Origin: a virus
Direction: 5' to 3' (one strand)
DNA length: 58,001 nucleotides
Virus record (IMG/VR): IMGVR_UViG_3300035698_014534
Coordinates: 1-58,001 of that record
Of this stretch, positions 607 to 14,935 are shown in pieces. Within the stretch, counting starts at the first letter, position 1. Every line of letters starts with the position of its first letter. Position numbers and translations under genes: made by a program. The notes under the pieces are model-generated. The model saw only the letters and a program-made list of their open reading frames with translations, was not told the DNA's origin and ran no database searches.

Positions 607-1503
607 ATGGTGCCAAGAAAAAGAGCAGTTAGAAAACAGGCCAAGATTGAAGACGGAGAACAGAGACTGGGAGCTATTGGAAAGACAGATCTGCCGTCAA
701 TGGAGGCCAGGTTTCAATACTACCTCGACCTCACCGAGTATGGCAAGGATCGCACGCATCTAAAGGGCACCGACGTGACCACTAGCGAGCTTCTGACGGT
801 CCTAAGCGGGACCATGCAAGCCTCAGATCTTTCCAAGTCGTGGACATCGACAAATCAACCGAATGAATTTTACAAAAACAATTATTTATCGTCATCATTC
901 TCCCCACCAGACAATGGCTGGACAATGGCAGCTAGATTCAAGACGGACACCCCCGCATCATCCTCCGCTGCCACTTGTATTTGCGCTATGAACGGCAGTG
1001 GCGGAGCTGGTGGTATCGGAATTTTTATTAACGAAGATGGCTACGTTTTTGCACTTAGCCAAACAGGATCAATAGCGGGCAGTGACGATTTGACAGACGA
1101 TGCTTGGCATAATGCTGTCTTGACATGCGTATCTGGTTCTGCTATAGATGTTGCAGTTACTTTTTATGTGGATGGGGTTCTAGTTGGGACTAACGCTTCT
1201 GGGTTTACCCCAACCTCTGCCCAATGGGATGATGGATTTATCGTTGGCCACGGTTTCGGGCAATGGGGATGGTTTGGAACTACAAATGAAGTTGTTATTT
1301 TCGGTGAAACTCTAACTGCCGCGCAGGCATTGATTTATCACTCGGGTAGCGGTAGTGACGTGAGAACCCTGGCCCTGCCCACTCCCGACCATTACTGGCC
1401 GATGAATGATCATCCTACCATAATAGATCTCGGGTCAAGACAAAAGAACCTCGTTGCCGGATCTAACACGGCTGACCACATTATTGTCGACTCACCTAGT
1501 TAA
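607..1503 (+). CDS. LamG-like (concanavalin-fold) virion or fibre protein
   Basis: This 298-aa protein has a basic N-terminal tail (MVPRKRAVRKQ), a linker to about residue 95, then a laminin-G-like beta-sandwich at about 100-240. Visible marks are GWTMAARFKT, DDAWHNAVLTCVSG, VTFYVDGVLVGT and the closing strand NEVVIFGETLTAAQ. LamG3 domains are common in phage fibres and decoration proteins and often bind glycans. A second LamG domain occurs in the 1175-aa structural protein at 53974. The last 11 codons and stop are the first half of a 60-bp tandem duplication. It starts with a good AAGAGG site. Virion location is inferred. Confidence 0.7.
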   Translation: MVPRKRAVRKQAKIEDGEQRLGAIGKTDLPSMEARFQYYLDLTEYGKDRTHLKGTDVTTSELLTVLSGTMQASDLSKSWTSTNQPNEFYKNNYLSSSFSPPDNGWTMAARFKTDTPASSSAATCICAMNGSGGAGGIGIFINEDGYVFALSQTGSIAGSDDLTDDAWHNAVLTCVSGSAIDVAVTFYVDGVLVGTNASGFTPTSAQWDDGFIVGHGFGQWGWFGTTNEVVIFGETLTAAQALIYHSGSGSDVRTLALPTPDHYWPMNDHPTIIDLGSRQKNLVAGSNTADHIIVDSPS

Positions 1504-1590
1504 CATATGAAAATTAAATTCATTCTAAAAGCTGACCACATTATTGTCGACTCACCTAGTTAACATATGAAAATTAAATTCATTCTAAAA
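1471..1590 (+). repeat. Perfect 60-bp tandem duplication across a gene junction
   Basis: Bases 1471-1530 and 1531-1590 are identical. Each unit carries the end of the LamG gene (codons for ADHIIVDSPS plus TAA) and the start of the next gene (ATG plus KIKFILK). Copy 1 therefore starts a mini-ORF at 1507 (MKIKFILK then ADHIIVDSPS, 18 aa) that stops before the true gene starts at 1567. Perfect identity means it is very recent, or an assembly artefact. Confidence 0.95.
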
Positions 1591-2328
1591 GAAGAAGGGC
1601 CTCCTAATGCCCAATACTTTGAAAAATATAGGGATTTCTTCAATTCCGAGTTTGATTCTGAACCAATAAGGGGAGCAGGCGGATGGGCTGGATCCACTCA
1701 ATATTTCGATCTTCAAGGGTTCGGGGAAAAGATAGAGAAGCTAGGGTTTGCAAGGCTCGGAGAGGGAGCTTTCAGAGTGGTCTACGCTTTCCCAGATGGC
1801 AAATTTGTTCTCAAGCTTGCCAAACAAGTGGGTTCTCTCAAGATGAACAAGTTGGAAGTCAGCCCGAAGATACAAACAAAGTATTATTCCATCCTTCCCA
1901 AAATGTACATCTATGCAAATGATTATCGTTGGATTGTCAACGAAAGAGTAGAGAAGGCGACTGCCGCAGACTTGGAACAAATCTTTCCATTTTTAGGGGC
2001 AGGGGAGTCGACCCCATGGAGATTGGACAACAAAAAAGACGGTGATGCGGAAGAGTCTTTCGTAGGCTTTTTAGAACTTGTCCGAAAGAACGCGAGAGAT
2101 AACAATATAAACATTGCTATCATCAAATCTATGGATCGCATGAAGCGATATACCGCCAATTGGTTGTCGGATCCAGACGAAGACTATTACAAGATTTCTC
2201 CAACGACGAACAAGATCATCGAGTTCATGTTAGAATACAAAGTTGTACCGAGTGACCTTTGGCTGAAGAATCTTGGCAAGACGAGCGATGGCAGATTTGT
2301 AATTTTGGACTATTCGATCTTTACTTAA
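1567..2328 (+). CDS. Protein-kinase-fold protein with MKIKFILKE leader
   Basis: This 253-aa protein shows a kinase-like signature. It has a glycine-rich loop LGEGAFRVVY (64-73), a VAIK-like lysine in FVLK (K83), a hinge-like WIVNERVE (122-129), a catalytic-loop-like D230-L-W-L-K-N235 with the D(+5)N spacing of kinases, and a DFG-like Asp in VILDYS (D248). It is a paralogue of 4770-5450. The first nine residues, MKIKFILKE, match the leader found on five other unrelated proteins here. A T4-like phage could use such a protein as a packaged or early host-modifying kinase, but activity is inferred. It converges on the minus-strand gene that ends at 2321. Confidence 0.65.
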   Translation: MKIKFILKEEGPPNAQYFEKYRDFFNSEFDSEPIRGAGGWAGSTQYFDLQGFGEKIEKLGFARLGEGAFRVVYAFPDGKFVLKLAKQVGSLKMNKLEVSPKIQTKYYSILPKMYIYANDYRWIVNERVEKATAADLEQIFPFLGAGESTPWRLDNKKDGDAEESFVGFLELVRKNARDNNINIAIIKSMDRMKRYTANWLSDPDEDYYKISPTTNKIIEFMLEYKVVPSDLWLKNLGKTSDGRFVILDYSIFT

Positions 2329-3602: not shown

Positions 3603-4346
3603 TTAATCCTACTTGCGCTACATTGCTTGCAGGTATAACATAAGCCATCTGGAGATCGTTTTCTCCTGCTAAAGTCCATTGTCGATTTTGCCGTGTCACA
3701 TCCGGTGCAACGTTTTGTTTCACCAATGATATACTCTGCTGGCTTTTTAAACTTCTCTTTTTCTTTTCGCTTAAGCCTGGACCTGGCCTGGGAAGCCTTT
3801 ACCTTGTCTGGGTTGTTCTCTCTATATTTTTTTCTTTTTGCTAAAATGTTCTTTTTATTAAGTTCGTAATGAACCCTCTTCTGTTTGAGGCGTTCCTTGC
3901 TATTCTTTCTTGGATTGTTCTTTATCCATTCTTTATGCTTTGCCTTAATCCTTTCCTTATTGGCTTTTTGATATAGCGCAACACATTCTTTGCACTTATA
4001 ACACAGTCCATCATTAGTTCTTTTATTCTTGGAAAACTTTACTAATGGCTTTTCCAGATTACATCTAGTACATTCTTTCATCTCATCAATCCTCTTCAAA
4101 AATTGACACCTAATCATTTGGCAAAAGTGACATATTGGGAAGAATATCTTATCCCCTTTGAATGGAGGAACGCAATCCGCATGTTCACATCTGGTACATC
4201 TTATCAAGACAGGTTTCCATTTTTTGAGTTCGTGGACACGGGCGCATTCATGCTGAAGGCATTCTATGCATAACGGGTAATTCGTTTCAAGGATGCCCCG
4301 AAATGGAGATGATATTTTTTTCGCCACACTCAACACAATTTATCAA
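3599..4346 (-). CDS. Multi-zinc-ribbon protein (Endo VII/HNH-type ribbons), frameshifted near its start
   Basis: The long frame (GTG 4336, 245 aa) has two copies of the ribbon found at the N terminus of phage Endo VII/HNH-type proteins: KECTRCNLEKP..DGLCYKCKEC and KRCTGCDTAKS..DGLCYTCKQC, joined by a very basic helix. No HNH core follows. Upstream are two more modules (LCIEC..HEC and IRCTRCEHADCVPPF..FPICHFC). A TTG frame at 4346 (MINCVECGEK) joins in frame if the A7 run at 4315-4321 is read as six, giving C-x2-C..C-x2-C. The segment is probably a fusion of several minigenes; internal starts at TTG (IRCTRC) and ATG (MKECTRC) are possible. A DNA-binding role is inferred. Confidence 0.55.
4131..4212. 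repeat. 82-bp dispersed direct repeat, copy 1
   Basis: Bases 4131-4212 match 5553-5634 at 81 of 82 positions. On the minus strand both encode the zinc module IRCT(R/K)CEHADCVPPFKGD..FFPI. Outside the block the sequences diverge abruptly. Here the module continues into a second knuckle (CHFC). This is recent duplication or recombination of a zinc cassette. Confidence 0.9.
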
Positions 4347-4349
4347 AGC

Positions 4350-4754
4350 TTAACCCGGTTTGTTATCCATTACCAATCTTTTAGGTCGAAAATTTCGAAA
4401 GCTTCTGACAGGATTACCCCATGGTAGGGTATAGTCACCAGTGGCTGCTTTGTCTAAATAAATCTTTTCAGGACTTAAAAGGGAGGTGTCGATCTTTAGT
4501 ATAATGATGTCTACCTTATCTCTGAATTTATCCCACCTGATACTTGAGAACTTCGCGTACTCATGTGCAACAACTGGATACTCGGACAAATATACAGGCG
4601 CCAGCGTATCCTTGTTGGTGTGCGCCCATGACTTGTTACTGTTGACATACCCCAGCCCGTTCTTTTCAATGGATGCCATGAAGGGGGCAAAGGTGGCGTG
4701 GAAGAGGAACGAGGGATGACCTTTAGACTCTTTCAGGTTAAATCTTACTTTTAT
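4350..4754 (-). CDS. ADP-ribosyltransferase-like protein with KVRFNLKE leader and ATA start
   Basis: An ATG at 4679 gives only 109 aa, but the frame is open upstream and encodes K-V-R-F-N-L-K-E followed by FLFHATFAPF. The codon where ATG is expected is ATA (4752-4754), preceded by GGGAG nine bases away. The paralogous leader at 5450 has ATG. With ATA as start it is 134 aa. FHAT (18-21), IEKNGLGYV and VYLSEYPVVAHEYA (54-67) then IIILKIDTS resemble small KptA/DarT-type ADP-ribosyltransferase folds (H-x-T, 'I..GL', 'YLS....A..YA'). It follows the kinase-like gene by 15 bases. The fold is a moderate-confidence guess; activity is unproven. Confidence 0.5.
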   Translation of the reverse strand: MKVRFNLKESKGHPSFLFHATFAPFMASIEKNGLGYVNSNKSWAHTNKDTLAPVYLSEYPVVAHEYAKFSSIRWDKFRDKVDIIILKIDTSLLSPEKIYLDKAATGDYTLPWGNPVRSFRNFRPKRLVMDNKPG

Positions 4755-4769
4755 TTGTCGTTTCTCCCA

Positions 4770-5450
4770 TTAGTAGAAAGCGATTGCTCTCTCGATATCG
4801 TCTCGGAAAGAAGCATCAATAATGACAATCTTTCCATTACTGGTCCCAAGATTATCTCTTCTGAGTTCTCCAGGCTTGATATCATATTCCATGATATAGT
4901 CTAGAATCAGGTGCCCTTTGGGGGTCAGGTCGTAGCCTCTGTAGTGCTCGGCCTCTGAAACGGCGGTTTTCACATCCTTCCCTTCATCGATCATCTTGTA
5001 GCGTATATCTGTGAAAATTTCGACAAGGACTATCCCTATTGGATCAATATATCTGCTTCTTTCAAATTTTGGGTTTATGATTTGTTCGAGGTCGCCTCTT
5101 TTTACTTGTGACGCCTTCTCTACAACGATCCATTCATAGTCCCTTGCGCTCATGTACATCTTCGGGAGAATGGCGCTGTATTTGGTTTGTACATAAGGGT
5201 CCACTTCTCTCTTGTTCATATTGCTATGGTTCTTCTCTTTTAGGAAGGCTACCTTCAATACATAATTGGAATCATCTGGGAAGGCATACGCCATCCTGAA
5301 ACCTCCTGCCCCTAAATATTTAAAACCTGCACTTATAAGAGCACGTTCTGCATCTTCCCCACTATGTTCGGAGAAGATGTGGTTGAGTATCCTTTTATAC
5401 TTTGAGAAAAATCCAAGGGTTTCCTCTTTTAAGTTAAATCTTACTTTCAT
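4770..5450 (-). CDS. Protein-kinase-fold protein with MKVRFNLKE leader (paralogue, Asp to Glu)
   Basis: This 226-aa paralogue of the gene at 1567 shares LPKMY, DYEWIV and GDLEQI with it. The kinase-like marks are LGAGGFRMAY (46-55), VLK (K66), WIVVEKA (107-113), E195-L-R-R-D-N200 and IVIIDAS (D212). The position equivalent to the catalytic Asp is Glu, so it may be inactive or altered. The leader MKVRFNLKE is nearly identical at DNA level to that of the ART-like gene downstream. CTATATAATA ends one base before the ATG. The two genes appear to be an operon. Confidence 0.65.
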   Translation of the reverse strand: MKVRFNLKEETLGFFSKYKRILNHIFSEHSGEDAERALISAGFKYLGAGGFRMAYAFPDDSNYVLKVAFLKEKNHSNMNKREVDPYVQTKYSAILPKMYMSARDYEWIVVEKASQVKRGDLEQIINPKFERSRYIDPIGIVLVEIFTDIRYKMIDEGKDVKTAVSEAEHYRGYDLTPKGHLILDYIMEYDIKPGELRRDNLGTSNGKIVIIDASFRDDIERAIAFY

Positions 5451-5550
5451 GTATTATATAGTTACTCTTGGAAACTATCTTGTCCTCAATGCAATCTCCA
5501 CAAAGGAGAAACTCTTGATCTTCTTCTAGATCAAAGACTTCAAAGCACAT
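5434..5550 (-). CDS. 38-aa Cys-containing mini-protein
   Basis: ATG 5550 opens MCFEVFDLEEDQEFLLCGDC, followed by a short charged tail, stopping inside the start of the kinase-like gene (17-base overlap). LLCGDC is a C-x2-C knuckle, and a single Cys is at residue 2. Its start overlaps the end of the zinc peptide at 5540-5629. The composition is clearly protein-like and acidic. It belongs to the local zinc minigene family by context. Function is unknown. Confidence 0.5.
   Translation of the reverse strand: MCFEVFDLEEDQEFLLCGDCIEDKIVSKSNYIIHESKI
5452..5460 (-). promoter_or_regulatory. TATATAATA element abutting a start codon
   Basis: Read on the minus strand, 5461-5448 is CTATATAATACATG, with the ATG of the kinase-like gene. 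The identical 14-mer occurs at 13809-13796 in front of another gene. If it is a -10 box, transcription would start at or inside the ATG, so either the message is leaderless or the element acts otherwise. Confidence 0.35.
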
Positions 5551-5629
5551 GCCATATTGGGAAGAATATCTTATCCCCTTTGAATGGAGGAACGCAATCC
5601 GCATGTTCACATTTGGTACATCTTATCAA
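5540..5629 (-). CDS. 29-aa truncated zinc module, TTG start
   Basis: TTG 5629 opens IRCTKCEHADCVPPFKGD and ends FFPIWHVL. It lies in the second copy of the 82-bp repeat and has lost the CHFC knuckle present in copy 1, so only the first knuckle remains. It is a duplicate, possibly non-functional. The TTG-ATA-A start context is shared with other peptides of this family. Confidence 0.4.
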   Translation of the reverse strand: MIRCTKCEHADCVPPFKGDKIFFPIWHVL

Positions 5630-5634
5630 GACAG
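5553..5634. repeat. 82-bp dispersed direct repeat, copy 2
   Basis: This is the second copy of the zinc-module block at 4131-4212, with one mismatch (t at 5613 versus c at 4191). It is followed on the coding strand by unrelated sequence that stops the frame early. Confidence 0.9.
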
Positions 5635-6177: not shown

Positions 6178-6729
6178 TTATAAAGAAAACTTTGTTCTGT
6201 CACTGCCATGCCACAATTCGATATGGCTTACATTAAAGGAAATCCCCTTGGGAACTGACCCAATATATACCGGAGGTTCCTTCGTCTCATCCCATTTCCC
6301 AGTCTTGGGATAATAGGCTAAAGTCACATGAGGGGCGTAGGTCTTATCCATATAAGAATCCTGCACTTCTACTTGTCTTTCAATTAAGTTATTGTGAAGT
6401 TCCGCTCTCAAAGCTGAAACCCTCTGGGAGAAGGTTACCTTACAATGGGCAACCAAAGTTTCCTTTTCGGAGTCATCTCGATTATCAAAATATTCGACCT
6501 CTCCAATTGTGACAGTTAATGGGCCGCTGAAGAAGTCTTTTTCACGGTGGACTCTACTACTGGTCCAATGTCGTCAGAGAACTTGTCTCCGACATATAAA
6601 ACGGTGATGTGTGGGGGACTGTCGTCCTCTTCACCTAGTGAGGGAAATTGGGCATGGTATTCTTCGGGCACTCTAATAAAGATACAGATCCTTCTGACTT
6701 CTTTCGTTTAGTCTAAATCTAACTTTCAT
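6178..6729 (-). pseudogene. 2H phosphoesterase / 2'-5' RNA-ligase-like gene with two frameshifts and MKVRFRLNE leader
   Basis: Three pieces read as one protein. ATG 6729 gives MKVRFRLNERSQKD, the middle (about 6543-6690) in another frame gives ICIFIRVPEEYHAQF and PPHITVLYVGD, and the last piece returns to the first frame with VAHCKVTF and APHVTLAYYP, ending at 6178. HIT and HVT are the two H-x-T motifs of 2H phosphoesterases (LigT/CPDase family). The total, 552 bases, is a multiple of three, so the two shifts compensate. The second shift is at a five-base run (6538-6542). As written, only the last 92 aa or so could be translated alone. Enzymes of this family cleave cyclic nucleotides or 2'-5' linkages; here the gene is broken or misread. 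Confidence 0.65.
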
Positions 6730-7887
6730 ACTTTCACGTTTAATCTTCTTACCGTGAAGATACTCTTCAATCCGGTCGTTTATTAAAGCAATAAAACGTT
6801 TAAACTCTGGCAGTGTTTTTTCAGGTTCTTCAAGATAATCCAAAATCCACTTGGGCGTGAAAACTACCGCAATTTCTCCATTTCGTTCCCCTGAAGCAAA
6901 TGCGAAAACATATTCTTCTCCCTTGATCATCTCGATAAAGTTAAATACGCGCTCTGCCTTTAACTTCTTCTTAGTCATCCAATTGAGATCATATCTAATG
7001 ACCTCCCTGAAGGCTGTTTCATCGTGAACCCACTCTAAAAACGTTTCGTGTGCATGTTGGTAAAACACTTTTCTATATTTTTTAATCAAATCCAATGAAA
7101 GATTTTTGGGAAGCTCGTTGTTTTCTGGATCTTTAAACTGGTCCGACCCAAAATGAAATTCTAATTTATTCTCCTTGCTATCTTTTGGAATGAGAATGAA
7201 GAGAGGGTCATCTTTCTTGTGGTAATAGTCGTAATAGTTTTTACCACCCGTACTAGCCGTACACCAGTCCGTCTTGTACCCCAAATAACATGCGGCGGCC
7301 TGATTGTCAGGAATGTATATGGTATACTCGGAATCGTCAGATACGACACGATACTCTGACTTCTTTTTCAGGTTGGGCAAGGTGTTTAATTCTTCCATCC
7401 ATTTTCTATACTTAAGAGTTGACGCATCGGTCAGTGCATTAAGCTCATTGTCTCCTTCGATTCTCATCAGATCCCTCTTTTCAGGAGGCTCTATGAATCT
7501 CTGGGTTTGAAAGAACTCTTCGAACACACCCACATCGCCCATAAGAAATAAGTCCAGCGGCCCCCTGTTGATCCTGCTGCGATAGCTTTCTTCTCTAGAC
7601 GTGTCGGAGTCTCTAATAAAAGTGGTTATTGTCCATTGGAGGGCAAGAGCAATTTGGGCCGGTTCCAAATCGAGACTGGCAATTCCCAGTTTGAGTCTTT
7701 TGAATGTCAACTCTCCAGCTTTGTCTACCTCGCCCATATGCTGAAGGTCTCTGAAGGTGATAATCCCACCGGAATCTTTTGGAAGCTTTTCGAATTCTCT
7801 ATTGAGCCTCTTCTTAAACTTCTTAGATGTAACCCTTTGCCAAACATCTTCTATTTTGATTTCTTTTAATATAAATTTGAACTTCAT
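6673..7887 (-). CDS. WC-motif protein with MKFKFILKE leader
   Basis: This is a protein of about 386 aa, continuing to 404 because its frame reads through the ATG (6729) of the next gene. It starts MKFKFILKEIKIEDVWQRV. The core motif is AAACYLGYKTDWCTAS at about residues 207-222, then YYDYYHKKDDPLFILI and KLEFHFGS, shared with 10500-12437 (ASCYYGIDTTWCIS) and in part with 2321-2903. I do not know the family's function. The lack of its own stop, with the next start in frame, suggests a small indel near the 3' end or a real fusion. The leader argues for packaging with the other leader proteins. Confidence 0.6.
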   Translation of the reverse strand: MKFKFILKEIKIEDVWQRVTSKKFKKRLNREFEKLPKDSGGIITFRDLQHMGEVDKAGELTFKRLKLGIASLDLEPAQIALALQWTITTFIRDSDTSREESYRSRINRGPLDLFLMGDVGVFEEFFQTQRFIEPPEKRDLMRIEGDNELNALTDASTLKYRKWMEELNTLPNLKKKSEYRVVSDDSEYTIYIPDNQAAACYLGYKTDWCTASTGGKNYYDYYHKKDDPLFILIPKDSKENKLEFHFGSDQFKDPENNELPKNLSLDLIKKYRKVFYQHAHETFLEWVHDETAFREVIRYDLNWMTKKKLKAERVFNFIEMIKGEEYVFAFASGERNGEIAVVFTPKWILDYLEEPEKTLPEFKRFIALINDRIEEYLHGKKIKRESMKVRFRLNERSQKDLYLY

Positions 7888-10499: not shown

Positions 10500-12437
10500 T
10501 CAAGCGGGGACTGGATCCCCGAGCGTTCCGTCAAGGCCGCTTTCTAACGCTCCTGTCGCCCTTTGATACGCCTTTGATATTTCCATAATGGATTTTATGA
10601 AAATGTTTGAAATATCAGACCAATTATCATCAATCAACTTAAAGAACTCAAATACAATGTCGTAATCGGTCTCTATATTGTGGGGTACTCTTATCCCAAG
10701 AGAGATCAAATCTGCGCCAATTCTTTTACCATTGCCATTTATCCCTGGTGTGATATTCACATTATAAACTTTGAAAGGTTGTTTCTTATATCTAGATTCT
10801 TCAAGAGGCAATTTTAATTGTGCAGACACTTCGTTGAAGTATTCTTCAATTCTATCTCCCACTAACAAATATATCTGCGTGATCCCGCGACTGCCAAATC
10901 CTGCAATTAATCTCGGAGGAAGGTAAAAATCAATCTCAGCGTTAATATCTAGGTACTCGGGGTTCTCTTCGTCTTCCGGGTCCAAATCAAGAACAAAGTT
11001 TTTGAATTCGTGATTCTGCATATCTTCTAAGTCCACATTGCTGCCATGCAAGAATCCTTTCTGAAGCAGCCTTCGTTTGACTTTTAAGAGATTGCGCTCC
11101 CAAGCCTCGTCTATTTCTTGTATATCAGATAAGAAGCTTTCCGTTTGGCCAAGATCAATCGCATGGTCAGTATCGGACCCTCTCCATTGCCAAAATATTT
11201 TCTTGTCATACTCATCAAGTTCAGATTCTACATAATCCATATTATACAAGTCGCCCACTAGAGGATTAAAACAGTCTTTAACCAAATCAATTTTTGGATT
11301 ATTCCAATCTATATAACCACTTTCTTTTGTAAAATCGGATATAGGGAAGGTTGGAAATAACATCAGTATATCTTGGTATATAAGGACGTGGATTTGCGGT
11401 GACCCTTCTTCTTCCCATTCGTAAGCTACCTCTATATGATTTAGTCTACGATTCATTTCGTTAACTGCTTCTTCTATTTCAGTGAAGTTTTTGGTATTCG
11501 GATTTTCTTCTATTATGAGCCCTGCATCTTCTTTGACTTCTTCAAGTTGATCGGTTGCCAACTCATGTATGTAGGATTCCGAACTATCGCGGATATTCTT
11601 TATATCCTTGTCGAACTCCTTGTCGAACTCCTTAGTCAGAAACTGGCTAATTTTCAGAATCTCGTCATCATCGAATACCTCAAGACTAATCCCCTGATCT
11701 ACTTTCTTCCTTAATGCTGCGGCCAATATATTATAAACAAAGTGCTCAAGAACGGTAGCCTCATCGATTGAATCATTTTTGGTATCAAAGAATTCCTCCA
11801 ACTCTGCTGTTCTTCCGTCATATACAAACGCAATCTTTCCGCCATCGCTCTTATTATCGTACCTATAGCTGTGTTTAAGGCGAACTATGACAAAAGACTT
11901 GCCCTGATTGGTATATCGGTCAAAATAGGGGCTATCGACGCCAGAAATGCACCATGTGGTATCTATTCCGTAATAACACGAAGCGTGTCGAGTTTGCGGG
12001 TAGACAGCCAACAGGAAGTCGTTGTCTTCAACCATGATGGATTCTTGATGGGCCTGTTTCGAATCTCGTCTTCTTTGTTCGGTTCTGGATTTCTCTCTTT
12101 CCATTCGATAGACTAGGTCACTGGCTTCTTGGTAAGAATACTTAAAAAGATCTCTACGTTCTGATGGGATTCTTTGTTTAAACCCCTCAAATTTTACGGC
12201 CGTATCGCCAATCATTATAAGAAATGCGCTAGACGGGACCGCACTGCCAAGTCCTATCAAATATTTATCATATTCTCGGACCATCCAAGGGATAAGCTTT
12301 TTATTTGGGGTTGTATCCATCTCTAAAAACTTATCAAAATCCCCGCTCTTGACCATTCCTGGGTACTTCTTTCTCAAGTCATCCAATCTGCCCTCTAGCA
12401 GAACAGCTTCGCTCAAAACAAACTTAAATTTCGCCAT
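10500..12437 (-). CDS. Large WC-motif protein with MAKFKFVLSE leader
   Basis: I place the start at ATG 12437 behind GGGAGATAAAA (645 aa) rather than at upstream in-frame codons (to 12506). It starts MAKFKFVLSEAVLLEGRLDD, followed by RKKYPGM and KKLIPWMVREYDKYL. The core has ASCYYGIDTTWCIS, a motif shared with the 7887 gene (AAACYLGYKTDWCTAS). The rest is acidic and unrecognised. The leader ends in LSE, with a second LLE four residues later, consistent with prohead-protease-type cleavage. The protein is cytoplasmic-looking, with no membrane segments. Packaging into the virion is inferred. Confidence 0.6.
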   Translation of the reverse strand: MAKFKFVLSEAVLLEGRLDDLRKKYPGMVKSGDFDKFLEMDTTPNKKLIPWMVREYDKYLIGLGSAVPSSAFLIMIGDTAVKFEGFKQRIPSERRDLFKYSYQEASDLVYRMEREKSRTEQRRRDSKQAHQESIMVEDNDFLLAVYPQTRHASCYYGIDTTWCISGVDSPYFDRYTNQGKSFVIVRLKHSYRYDNKSDGGKIAFVYDGRTAELEEFFDTKNDSIDEATVLEHFVYNILAAALRKKVDQGISLEVFDDDEILKISQFLTKEFDKEFDKDIKNIRDSSESYIHELATDQLEEVKEDAGLIIEENPNTKNFTEIEEAVNEMNRRLNHIEVAYEWEEEGSPQIHVLIYQDILMLFPTFPISDFTKESGYIDWNNPKIDLVKDCFNPLVGDLYNMDYVESELDEYDKKIFWQWRGSDTDHAIDLGQTESFLSDIQEIDEAWERNLLKVKRRLLQKGFLHGSNVDLEDMQNHEFKNFVLDLDPEDEENPEYLDINAEIDFYLPPRLIAGFGSRGITQIYLLVGDRIEEYFNEVSAQLKLPLEESRYKKQPFKVYNVNITPGINGNGKRIGADLISLGIRVPHNIETDYDIVFEFFKLIDDNWSDISNIFIKSIMEISKAYQRATGALESGLDGTLGDPVPA

Positions 12438-14860: not shown

Positions 14861-14935
14861 TGGAGGACCAAGTAGGGATTGAACCTACGACCTAGAAGTT
14901 AACAGCTTCTTGATCTGCCACTGAGCTATTGATCC
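14861..14935 (-). tRNA. tRNA-Asn (GTT)
   Basis: The 75-nt minus-strand sequence folds as a cloverleaf. Acceptor GGATCAA pairs with TTGGTCC, the D-arm is GCTC..GATC with one mismatch, the anticodon stem AGAAG/CTTCT encloses loop CTGTTAA (anticodon GTT, Asn), and the T-arm is GTAGG-TTCAATC-CCTAC. The 3' CCA is encoded. It sits between gmd and the 186-aa gene, on the same strand. Confidence 0.9.

What the first reader, a model, noticed from the sequence alone, without database searches (positions are those of the whole stretch)
4350..4754. ADP-ribosyltransferase-like gene with an ATA in place of the start ATG
The conserved KVRFNLKE leader and the FHAT motif lie upstream of the first ATG. The codon at the leader start is ATA (4752-4754) with GGGAG nine bases before it, while the near-identical leader of the neighbouring gene uses ATG. 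Either ATA is a working start, or a point mutation silenced the gene, or the frame is expressed by another route. The 'H-x-T ... I..GL ... YLS....A..YA' pattern is typical of small ART/KptA-type folds.
Basis: partly seen in the sequence, partly recalled or inferred. Interest (0 to 1): 0.7.

Follow-up and report, generated by a model that had tools for sequence, protein, structure and literature searches.

The report
Phage enzyme gene with capsid-address tag
An uncultured bacterial virus carries a small enzyme gene, probably an ADP-ribosyltransferase, whose first nine amino acids look like the address tag that packs proteins into the virus head for injection, but the gene begins with ATA instead of ATG, so it may be weakly expressed, freshly broken or misread.

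Summary
Confirmed: a frame at 4754-4350 (minus) starts at ATA with GGGAG nine bases upstream, and FHAT lies before the first ATG (4679).

The fold call holds. The model (pLDDT 62) matches the catalytic lobe of KptA/Tpt1 best (Z 9.7, 92 residues), and a seven-sequence profile hits KptA (E 1e-4). The KptA RNA-binding lobe is missing, so this is an ART-superfamily domain, not a KptA.

The leader is the real find. It heads five further window genes (two kinase-like, two unknown, one broken 2H phosphoesterase) and resembles the T4 capsid-targeting sequence, cut after [LI]xE. The same ART domain wears a different leader in other huge phages (LKE in LR756508, INE in Lak), and both encode an S77 prohead protease. 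Likeliest role: a head-packaged, injected effector like T4 Alt. Packaging was not testable.

ATA stands where neighbours have ATG. No tabulated leader gene in LR756508 uses ATA. Odd features cluster nearby at one contig end (perfect 60-bp duplication, twice-frameshifted gene), so a lost start or sequence error is somewhat likelier than a weak working AUA start.

The parts
4350..4754 (-). ART-superfamily ORF, 134 codons from ATA plus stop
   Evidence: fold; homologues
4728..4754 (-). leader IKVRFNLKE, capsid-targeting-like, proposed cut after LKE
4752..4754 (-). ATA codon at the start position
4764..4768 (-). GGGAG, Shine-Dalgarno-like, 9 bases upstream of ATA
4692..4703 (-). FHAT motif (residues 18-21); H19 and T21 invariant in 7 of 7 aligned sequences
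4677..4679 (-). first ATG of the frame (residue 26), downstream of the motif
4770..5450 (-). kinase-like gene (phrog_4301; YrbL-like below cut-off) with leader MKVRFNLKE
1567..2328 (+). second kinase-like gene with leader MKIKFILKE
6673..7887 (-). 404-aa gene with leader MKFKFILKE, unknown function (phrog_28193/17056)
10500..12437 (-). 645-aa gene with leader MAKFKFVLSE, shares a domain with the 404-aa protein
6178..6729 (-). 2H-phosphoesterase-like gene with leader MKVRFRLNE, frame changed twice (broken or misread)

Best explanation
The frame encodes a small H-x-T type ADP-ribosyltransferase-superfamily domain (like the catalytic lobe of KptA) behind a nine-residue leader. The leader works like the T4 capsid-targeting sequence: it carries the protein into the prohead core, the prohead protease cuts after L-K-E, and the freed enzyme is injected with the DNA to modify a host molecule early in infection. 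It is one of at least six leader-bearing genes in this 11-kb stretch (two kinase-like, one 2H-phosphoesterase-like, two of unknown function, and this one). ATA stands where translation of this gene starts or started. I judge a lost start or a sequence error (about 0.6 together) likelier than a working, weak AUA start (about 0.33). Shown: the ORF, ATA, leader sharing, fold match, and lineage-specific leaders on relatives. Inferred: packaging, cleavage, injection, catalysis, target.
For: Leaders: 4 DNA matches, 0.00 expected, plus MKFKFILKE and MAKFKFVLSE. T4's own propeptides read from its record have the same plan: ipII/ipIII MKTYQEFIAE|A, gp24 MAKINELLRE|S (the bars are recalled; CTS length and the roles of residues 4, 7, 8, 10 are in PMC9026906, passages). 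In LR756508.1 a leader pattern is enriched at gene starts: 34 of 5979 positions against 102 of 153,023 elsewhere. A matrix made from LR756508 leaders only finds 3 of 807 start positions against 6 of 17,553 internal positions in the window. The same ART domain has leader MVRLYRILKE in LR756508 and ...SVKKSINE in Lak-B5; the Lak-type leader was seen on 4 genes in all, the ART included, in 320 kb. S77 prohead protease: LR756508 and Lak-B5, 0 of 14 controls; also Mel-JY01, immuto, T4 and two IMG/VR relatives over cut-off. Fold: Z 9.7, 92 residues, 2.3 A to KptA; profile to KptA 1.1e-4, to DarT1 0.064. Precedent: T4 Alt is a head-packaged ADP-ribosyltransferase with a six-residue propeptide, ITE-6 (PMC5694885, passages); ARTs are often packaged in myovirus heads (PMC9503650, passages).
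Against: No protease gene is on the 58-kb fragment, and no virion data exist for this phage. The KVRFNLKE leader itself scores only 2.7 with the LR756508 matrix, below threshold. The 50-kb parts of Mel-JY01 and immuto showed no leaders by the pattern (0 of 643 and 0 of 428 start positions); the T4 part also gave 0 of 644 by that pattern, so it is lineage-bound. The window protein itself hits no Pfam or PHROG family. The model is of middling confidence (pLDDT 62.3, 33 residues under 50). Relative L049 has only a very short head (MRISE) and L050 no clear leader.
Confidence: 0.66

Rival explanations
1. AUA is a working start: the ribosome binds GGGAG and initiates at AUA at a fraction of AUG strength, which keeps a harmful enzyme low in the producing cell while enough is packed.
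For: GGAG at good spacing where 23 of 45 genes have such a site and 8.6% of random positions do. The 134-codon frame has no stop or visible frame change and carries the residues conserved in relatives. Table 11 lists ATA as a possible start (recalled). In S. aureus the AUA starts of infC, ccpN and citZ are used, the tested ones at roughly 10-30% of AUG (PMC13009471, passages).
Against: 28 of 28 leader genes tabulated in LR756508 begin with ATG (24) or GTG (4). That list came partly from scans requiring standard starts; the scan without that requirement gave one ATA candidate, which has an in-frame GTG upstream. The other window leaders use ATG. The S. aureus sites have extended SD motifs; this one has not.
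Confidence: 0.33
2. The start was lost by a point change, so the gene is a recently silenced member of a decaying effector cluster.
For: The neighbouring leader gene at 6729 is broken by two frame changes. An 85-nt, 98% repeat (4128-4212, 5550-5634) shows rearrangement there.
Against: No lesion elsewhere in the frame; no population data.
Confidence: 0.33
3. Assembly or sequencing error: the true sequence has ATG.
For: The only two long direct repeats of the 58-kb window, one of them a perfect 60-nt tandem copy as an unmerged contig join would leave, lie at 1.4-5.7 kb near one contig end, together with the two-frameshift gene.
Against: Neighbouring long genes are intact; a substitution is rarer than an indel in assemblies (general knowledge).
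Confidence: 0.27
4. Expression by another route: read-through of the kinase TAA (same frame) or a +1 slip from the ATG at 4770 that overlaps that stop.
For: Frames are in phase, five codons apart; ATG 4770-4768 overlaps the stop in another frame (sequence).
Against: No slippery heptamer by eye; TAA is a tight stop (recalled); the SD spacing fits the ATA.
Confidence: 0.04
5. The shared leader is only a duplicated translation-start element, not a protein-level tag.
For: Leader DNA of 4754 and 5450 is 89% identical over 27 nt.
Against: Other lineages keep the residue plan in other sequence, and Lak has a quite different leader that still ends [IL]NE.
Confidence: 0.15

Closest known systems
T4 Alt (head-packaged, injected ADP-ribosyltransferase)
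   Same: ART superfamily; short N-terminal leader ending [LI]xE; T4-like phage
   Different: Alt is large and, by recollection, of the R-S-E class; this domain is of the H-x-T class and the whole frame has 134 codons; packaging here is inferred
T4 internal proteins IPI-III with capsid-targeting sequence
   Same: different proteins share a roughly 10-residue leader with a prohead-protease site
   Different: sequence MKTYQEFIAE against MKVRFNLKE; here the tagged proteins look like enzymes
KptA/Tpt1 RNA 2'-phosphotransferase
   Same: best structural and profile matches; H-x-T ... GL ... YLS plan
   Different: no N-terminal RNA-binding lobe; below the Pfam cut-off
DarT1 ssDNA ADP-ribosyltransferase
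   Same: weaker fold and profile match (Z 6.1; E 0.064)
   Different: no macrodomain partner gene was noticed next to it, though none was searched for

Membership tests
T4-type capsid-targeted internal protein | short N-terminal leader shared by otherwise unrelated proteins of one phage | tested here: met
T4-type capsid-targeted internal protein | leader ends in a gp21-type site [LI]xE | tested here: met
   LKE; sequence. Site rule: logo passage in PMC9026906, ITE-6 of Alt, general form recalled
T4-type capsid-targeted internal protein | S77 prohead protease in the same phage | tested here: inconclusive
   absent from the 58-kb fragment; present in LR756508 and Lak-B5, Mel-JY01 and immuto
T4-type capsid-targeted internal protein | found in the head and cleaved | not testable with these tools
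   no virion data
ADP-ribosyltransferase superfamily | ART fold | tested here: met
   pLDDT only 62.3
ADP-ribosyltransferase superfamily | conserved histidine of the NAD pocket (H-x-T, recalled) | tested here: met
   H19 and T21 invariant in 7 of 7
ADP-ribosyltransferase superfamily | NAD-dependent transfer activity | not testable with these tools
   needs an assay
KptA/Tpt1 | N-terminal RNA-binding lobe of about 80 residues before the ART lobe | tested here: not met
   the model aligns only to the C-terminal part (from chain residue 81 on) of the KptA rows; about 13 residues precede the domain in the frame
KptA/Tpt1 | Pfam PF01885 curated score | tested here: not met
   window protein 0 families; LR756508 relative 23.6 bits, cut-off 26
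KptA/Tpt1 | R-H-R-R catalytic tetrad (recalled) | not tested
   residues recalled, not mapped by a call

The most novel reading that the evidence does not exclude
Huge and T4-like phages each keep their own address-tag code: a lineage-specific leader ending [LI]xE that marks tens of enzymes for head packaging. The tag can be read from sequence alone, LR756508 with about 28 tagged genes and Lak included. In this phage the ART is throttled by a working AUA start.
Probability: 0.22. Interest if true: 0.8.

Novelty: new variant of a known kind. Interest (0 to 1): 0.55.

Why it matters
Injected phage effectors are hard to recognise because their enzyme domains differ. If the leader is a head address, the arsenal of an uncultured phage can be listed from its genome: here kinase-like proteins, an ART and a 2H phosphoesterase, and in LR756508 some 28 genes, 15 of them one paralogous group. 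That would make early host takeover and counter-defence in huge phages, Lak included, directly testable. The ATA start would be a natural test of non-AUG initiation in phages.

Tried and rejected
Searches that found nothing: ART protein alone, the kinase and the baseplate protein in viral contigs; ART profile in genome contigs; near DNA search of window 1-25000 in phages; kinase in phages; an exact pattern around the start allowing ATA or ATG in viral contigs, 0 hits, so the start codon could not be compared in close relatives. A degenerate leader pattern gave 7 contigs; none placed the leader behind a start codon on an ART-like frame.

Rejected: start at the ATG 4679, because it removes leader and H19. 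Also rejected: one ATA-start candidate in LR756508 (L012:11776), which has an in-frame GTG start. The reading of the 15-member LR756508 paralog group as R-S-E type ARTs rests on my eye and recalled motifs: in an alignment of 11 of the 15, R34 is invariant and S82 and E243 nearly so, but Pfam and PDB searches gave no ART support and PHROGs mostly families without a name, so I do not claim it. A loose leader pattern was hardly discriminating (45 of 3101 starts against 9 of 1162 internal ATGs). That VIA-align listed no Arr or Alt structure shows nothing either way. That 6 of 7 ART relatives have some [LI]xE near the start is by eye, without a control, and is not counted as evidence.

Negative literature: no paper in the held library linking Lak or other huge phages to capsid-targeting leaders turned up in the searches. 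This is limited to open-licence papers, and listings or passages only were read.

Full report
WHAT IS THERE. The window is a 58,001-base virus record of IMG/VR, with T4-like tail genes (baseplate wedge); its baseplate protein is 32% identical to that of Microcystis phage Mel-JY01, 32% to Flavobacterium phage immuto and 29% to the 484-kb uncultured phage LR756508.1. A 134-codon frame runs 4754-4350 on the minus strand, begins with ATA, has GGGAG nine bases upstream, and holds FHAT before its first ATG at 4679. The ribosome site is more than chance: 23 of 45 window genes that I picked (this frame among them) have GGAG, GAGG or AGGA upstream, against 8.6% of 5000 random positions.

THE PROTEIN. 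Alone it matches nothing in Pfam or PHROGs. tblastn finds relatives in LR756508.1 and in Prevotella phages Lak-B1 to B9 (10 records, E 1e-3 to 0.08). A profile adds IMG/VR contigs. The LR756508 relative reaches Pfam PTS_2-RNA (KptA/Tpt1) at 6e-5, under the curated cut-off, and the PHROG RNA 2'-phosphotransferase at 1.4e-5. A seven-sequence profile hits solved KptA at 1.1e-4 and DarT1 at 0.064. The AlphaFold model (5 sequences, pLDDT 62.3, pTM 0.62) matches KptA best: Foldseek E 0.016, Z 9.7 over 92 residues at 2.3 A, with the 18 best rows all KptA/Tpt1. The alignment covers only the C-terminal, catalytic lobe of KptA. I therefore call it an ART-superfamily domain that looks like the KptA lobe, not a KptA. 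Activity is untested.

THE LEADER. The same nine or ten residues head five other window genes: 1567 MKIKFILKE and 5450 MKVRFNLKE (both kinase-like), 7887 MKFKFILKE and 12437 MAKFKFVLSE (share a domain of unknown function), and 6729 MKVRFRLNE, a 2H-phosphoesterase-like gene whose frame changes twice. The DNA pattern occurs four times with none expected. All end in L-x-E. T4 internal proteins carry a ten-residue capsid-targeting sequence removed by the prohead protease gp21 (PMC9026906, passages), and Alt, itself an ADP-ribosyltransferase injected with the DNA, is cut at ITE-6 (PMC5694885, passages). T4's record shows MKTYQEFIAE|A for ipII and ipIII and MAKINELLRE|S for gp24 (bars from recall).

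LINEAGE-SPECIFIC TAGS. In LR756508 a tight leader pattern stands at 34 of 5979 gene-start positions against 102 of 153,023 others. I tabulated 28 such genes; 15 are linked by BLAST into one paralogous group, and others include a protein with a short match to the window kinase, a P-loop kinase and three proteins with H-x-T segments, two of them touching Pfam KptA weakly. Its ART relative has the leader MVRLYRILKE, in the LR756508 style. In Lak-B5 the ART relative begins MNSIQKKTLYENIIKSISKSVKKSINE, a leader type seen on 4 genes in all, the ART included, in the 320 kb read. A matrix built from LR756508 leaders alone picks three of the window leaders blind (3 of 807 start positions against 6 of 17,553 internal ones), but KVRFNLKE scores only 2.7 and is missed. 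LR756508 and Lak-B5 both encode an S77 prohead protease (0 of 14 control genomes), as do Mel-JY01, immuto, T4 and the IMG/VR relatives G003 and G004, with G002 below cut-off; the window and G001, both fragments, show none. One enzyme domain wearing a different local tag in each lineage is what a head-address code predicts. Against this, two sampled relatives showed no leaders by the pattern, and no virion proteome exists.

THE ATA. The start position is fixed by the leader, the neighbour and the SD. None of the 28 tabulated LR756508 leader genes uses ATA (24 ATG, 4 GTG; the table leaned on scans that ask for standard starts). AUA starts can work at roughly 10-30% of AUG in S. aureus (PMC13009471, passages). 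The surroundings look disturbed: the only long direct repeats of the window are a perfect 60-nt tandem copy at 1471-1590 and an 85-nt copy at 4128/5550, and the gene at 6178-6729 is out of frame twice. All lie within the 6.7 kb at one contig end. No close relative exists in the collection to compare. I split the odds as about 0.33 working AUA, 0.33 silenced, 0.27 sequence error, 0.04 other routes.

KNOWN AND NEW. Head-packaged ARTs are known: PMC9503650 (passages) finds about 44% of phage ARTs in contexts suggestive of packaging and names KptA and 2H as phage enzymes. What I did not find in print is capsid-targeting leaders as lineage-specific tags in huge phages. I rate it a new variant of a known kind.

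Noticed in passing
window 1471-1590: Perfect 60-nt tandem duplication that includes the start and leader of the kinase-like gene at 1567; may be an unmerged contig join.
   Followed up: partly
window 6178-6729: 2H-phosphoesterase-like gene with the leader MKVRFRLNE whose frame changes twice within about 140 bases.
   Followed up: partly
window 4128-4212 and 5550-5634: 85-nt repeat, 98% identical, in and near a cysteine-rich endonuclease-like gene.
   Followed up: no
L014:6480-8204 (LR756508.1): The S77 prohead protease match is split by about 1 kb inside one 574-aa frame; looks like an intein (recalled motifs).
   Followed up: no
L014, L016, L017, L028 (LR756508.1): A second leader type, M...KLRxIIxEE(I/L), heads many genes, several near the prohead protease.
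   Followed up: no
L019, L021, L023, L017, L028 (LR756508.1): 15 leader-bearing paralogs; near-invariant R, S and E in the 11 aligned; perhaps R-S-E type ADP-ribosyltransferases, unconfirmed by Pfam and PDB searches.
   Followed up: partly
window 14861-14935: A single tRNA-Asn gene next to a sugar-nucleotide dehydratase-like gene (by eye).
   Followed up: no
window 19263-43356: Long block of sugar-nucleotide and glycosyltransferase-like genes (by eye) in the phage genome.
   Followed up: no
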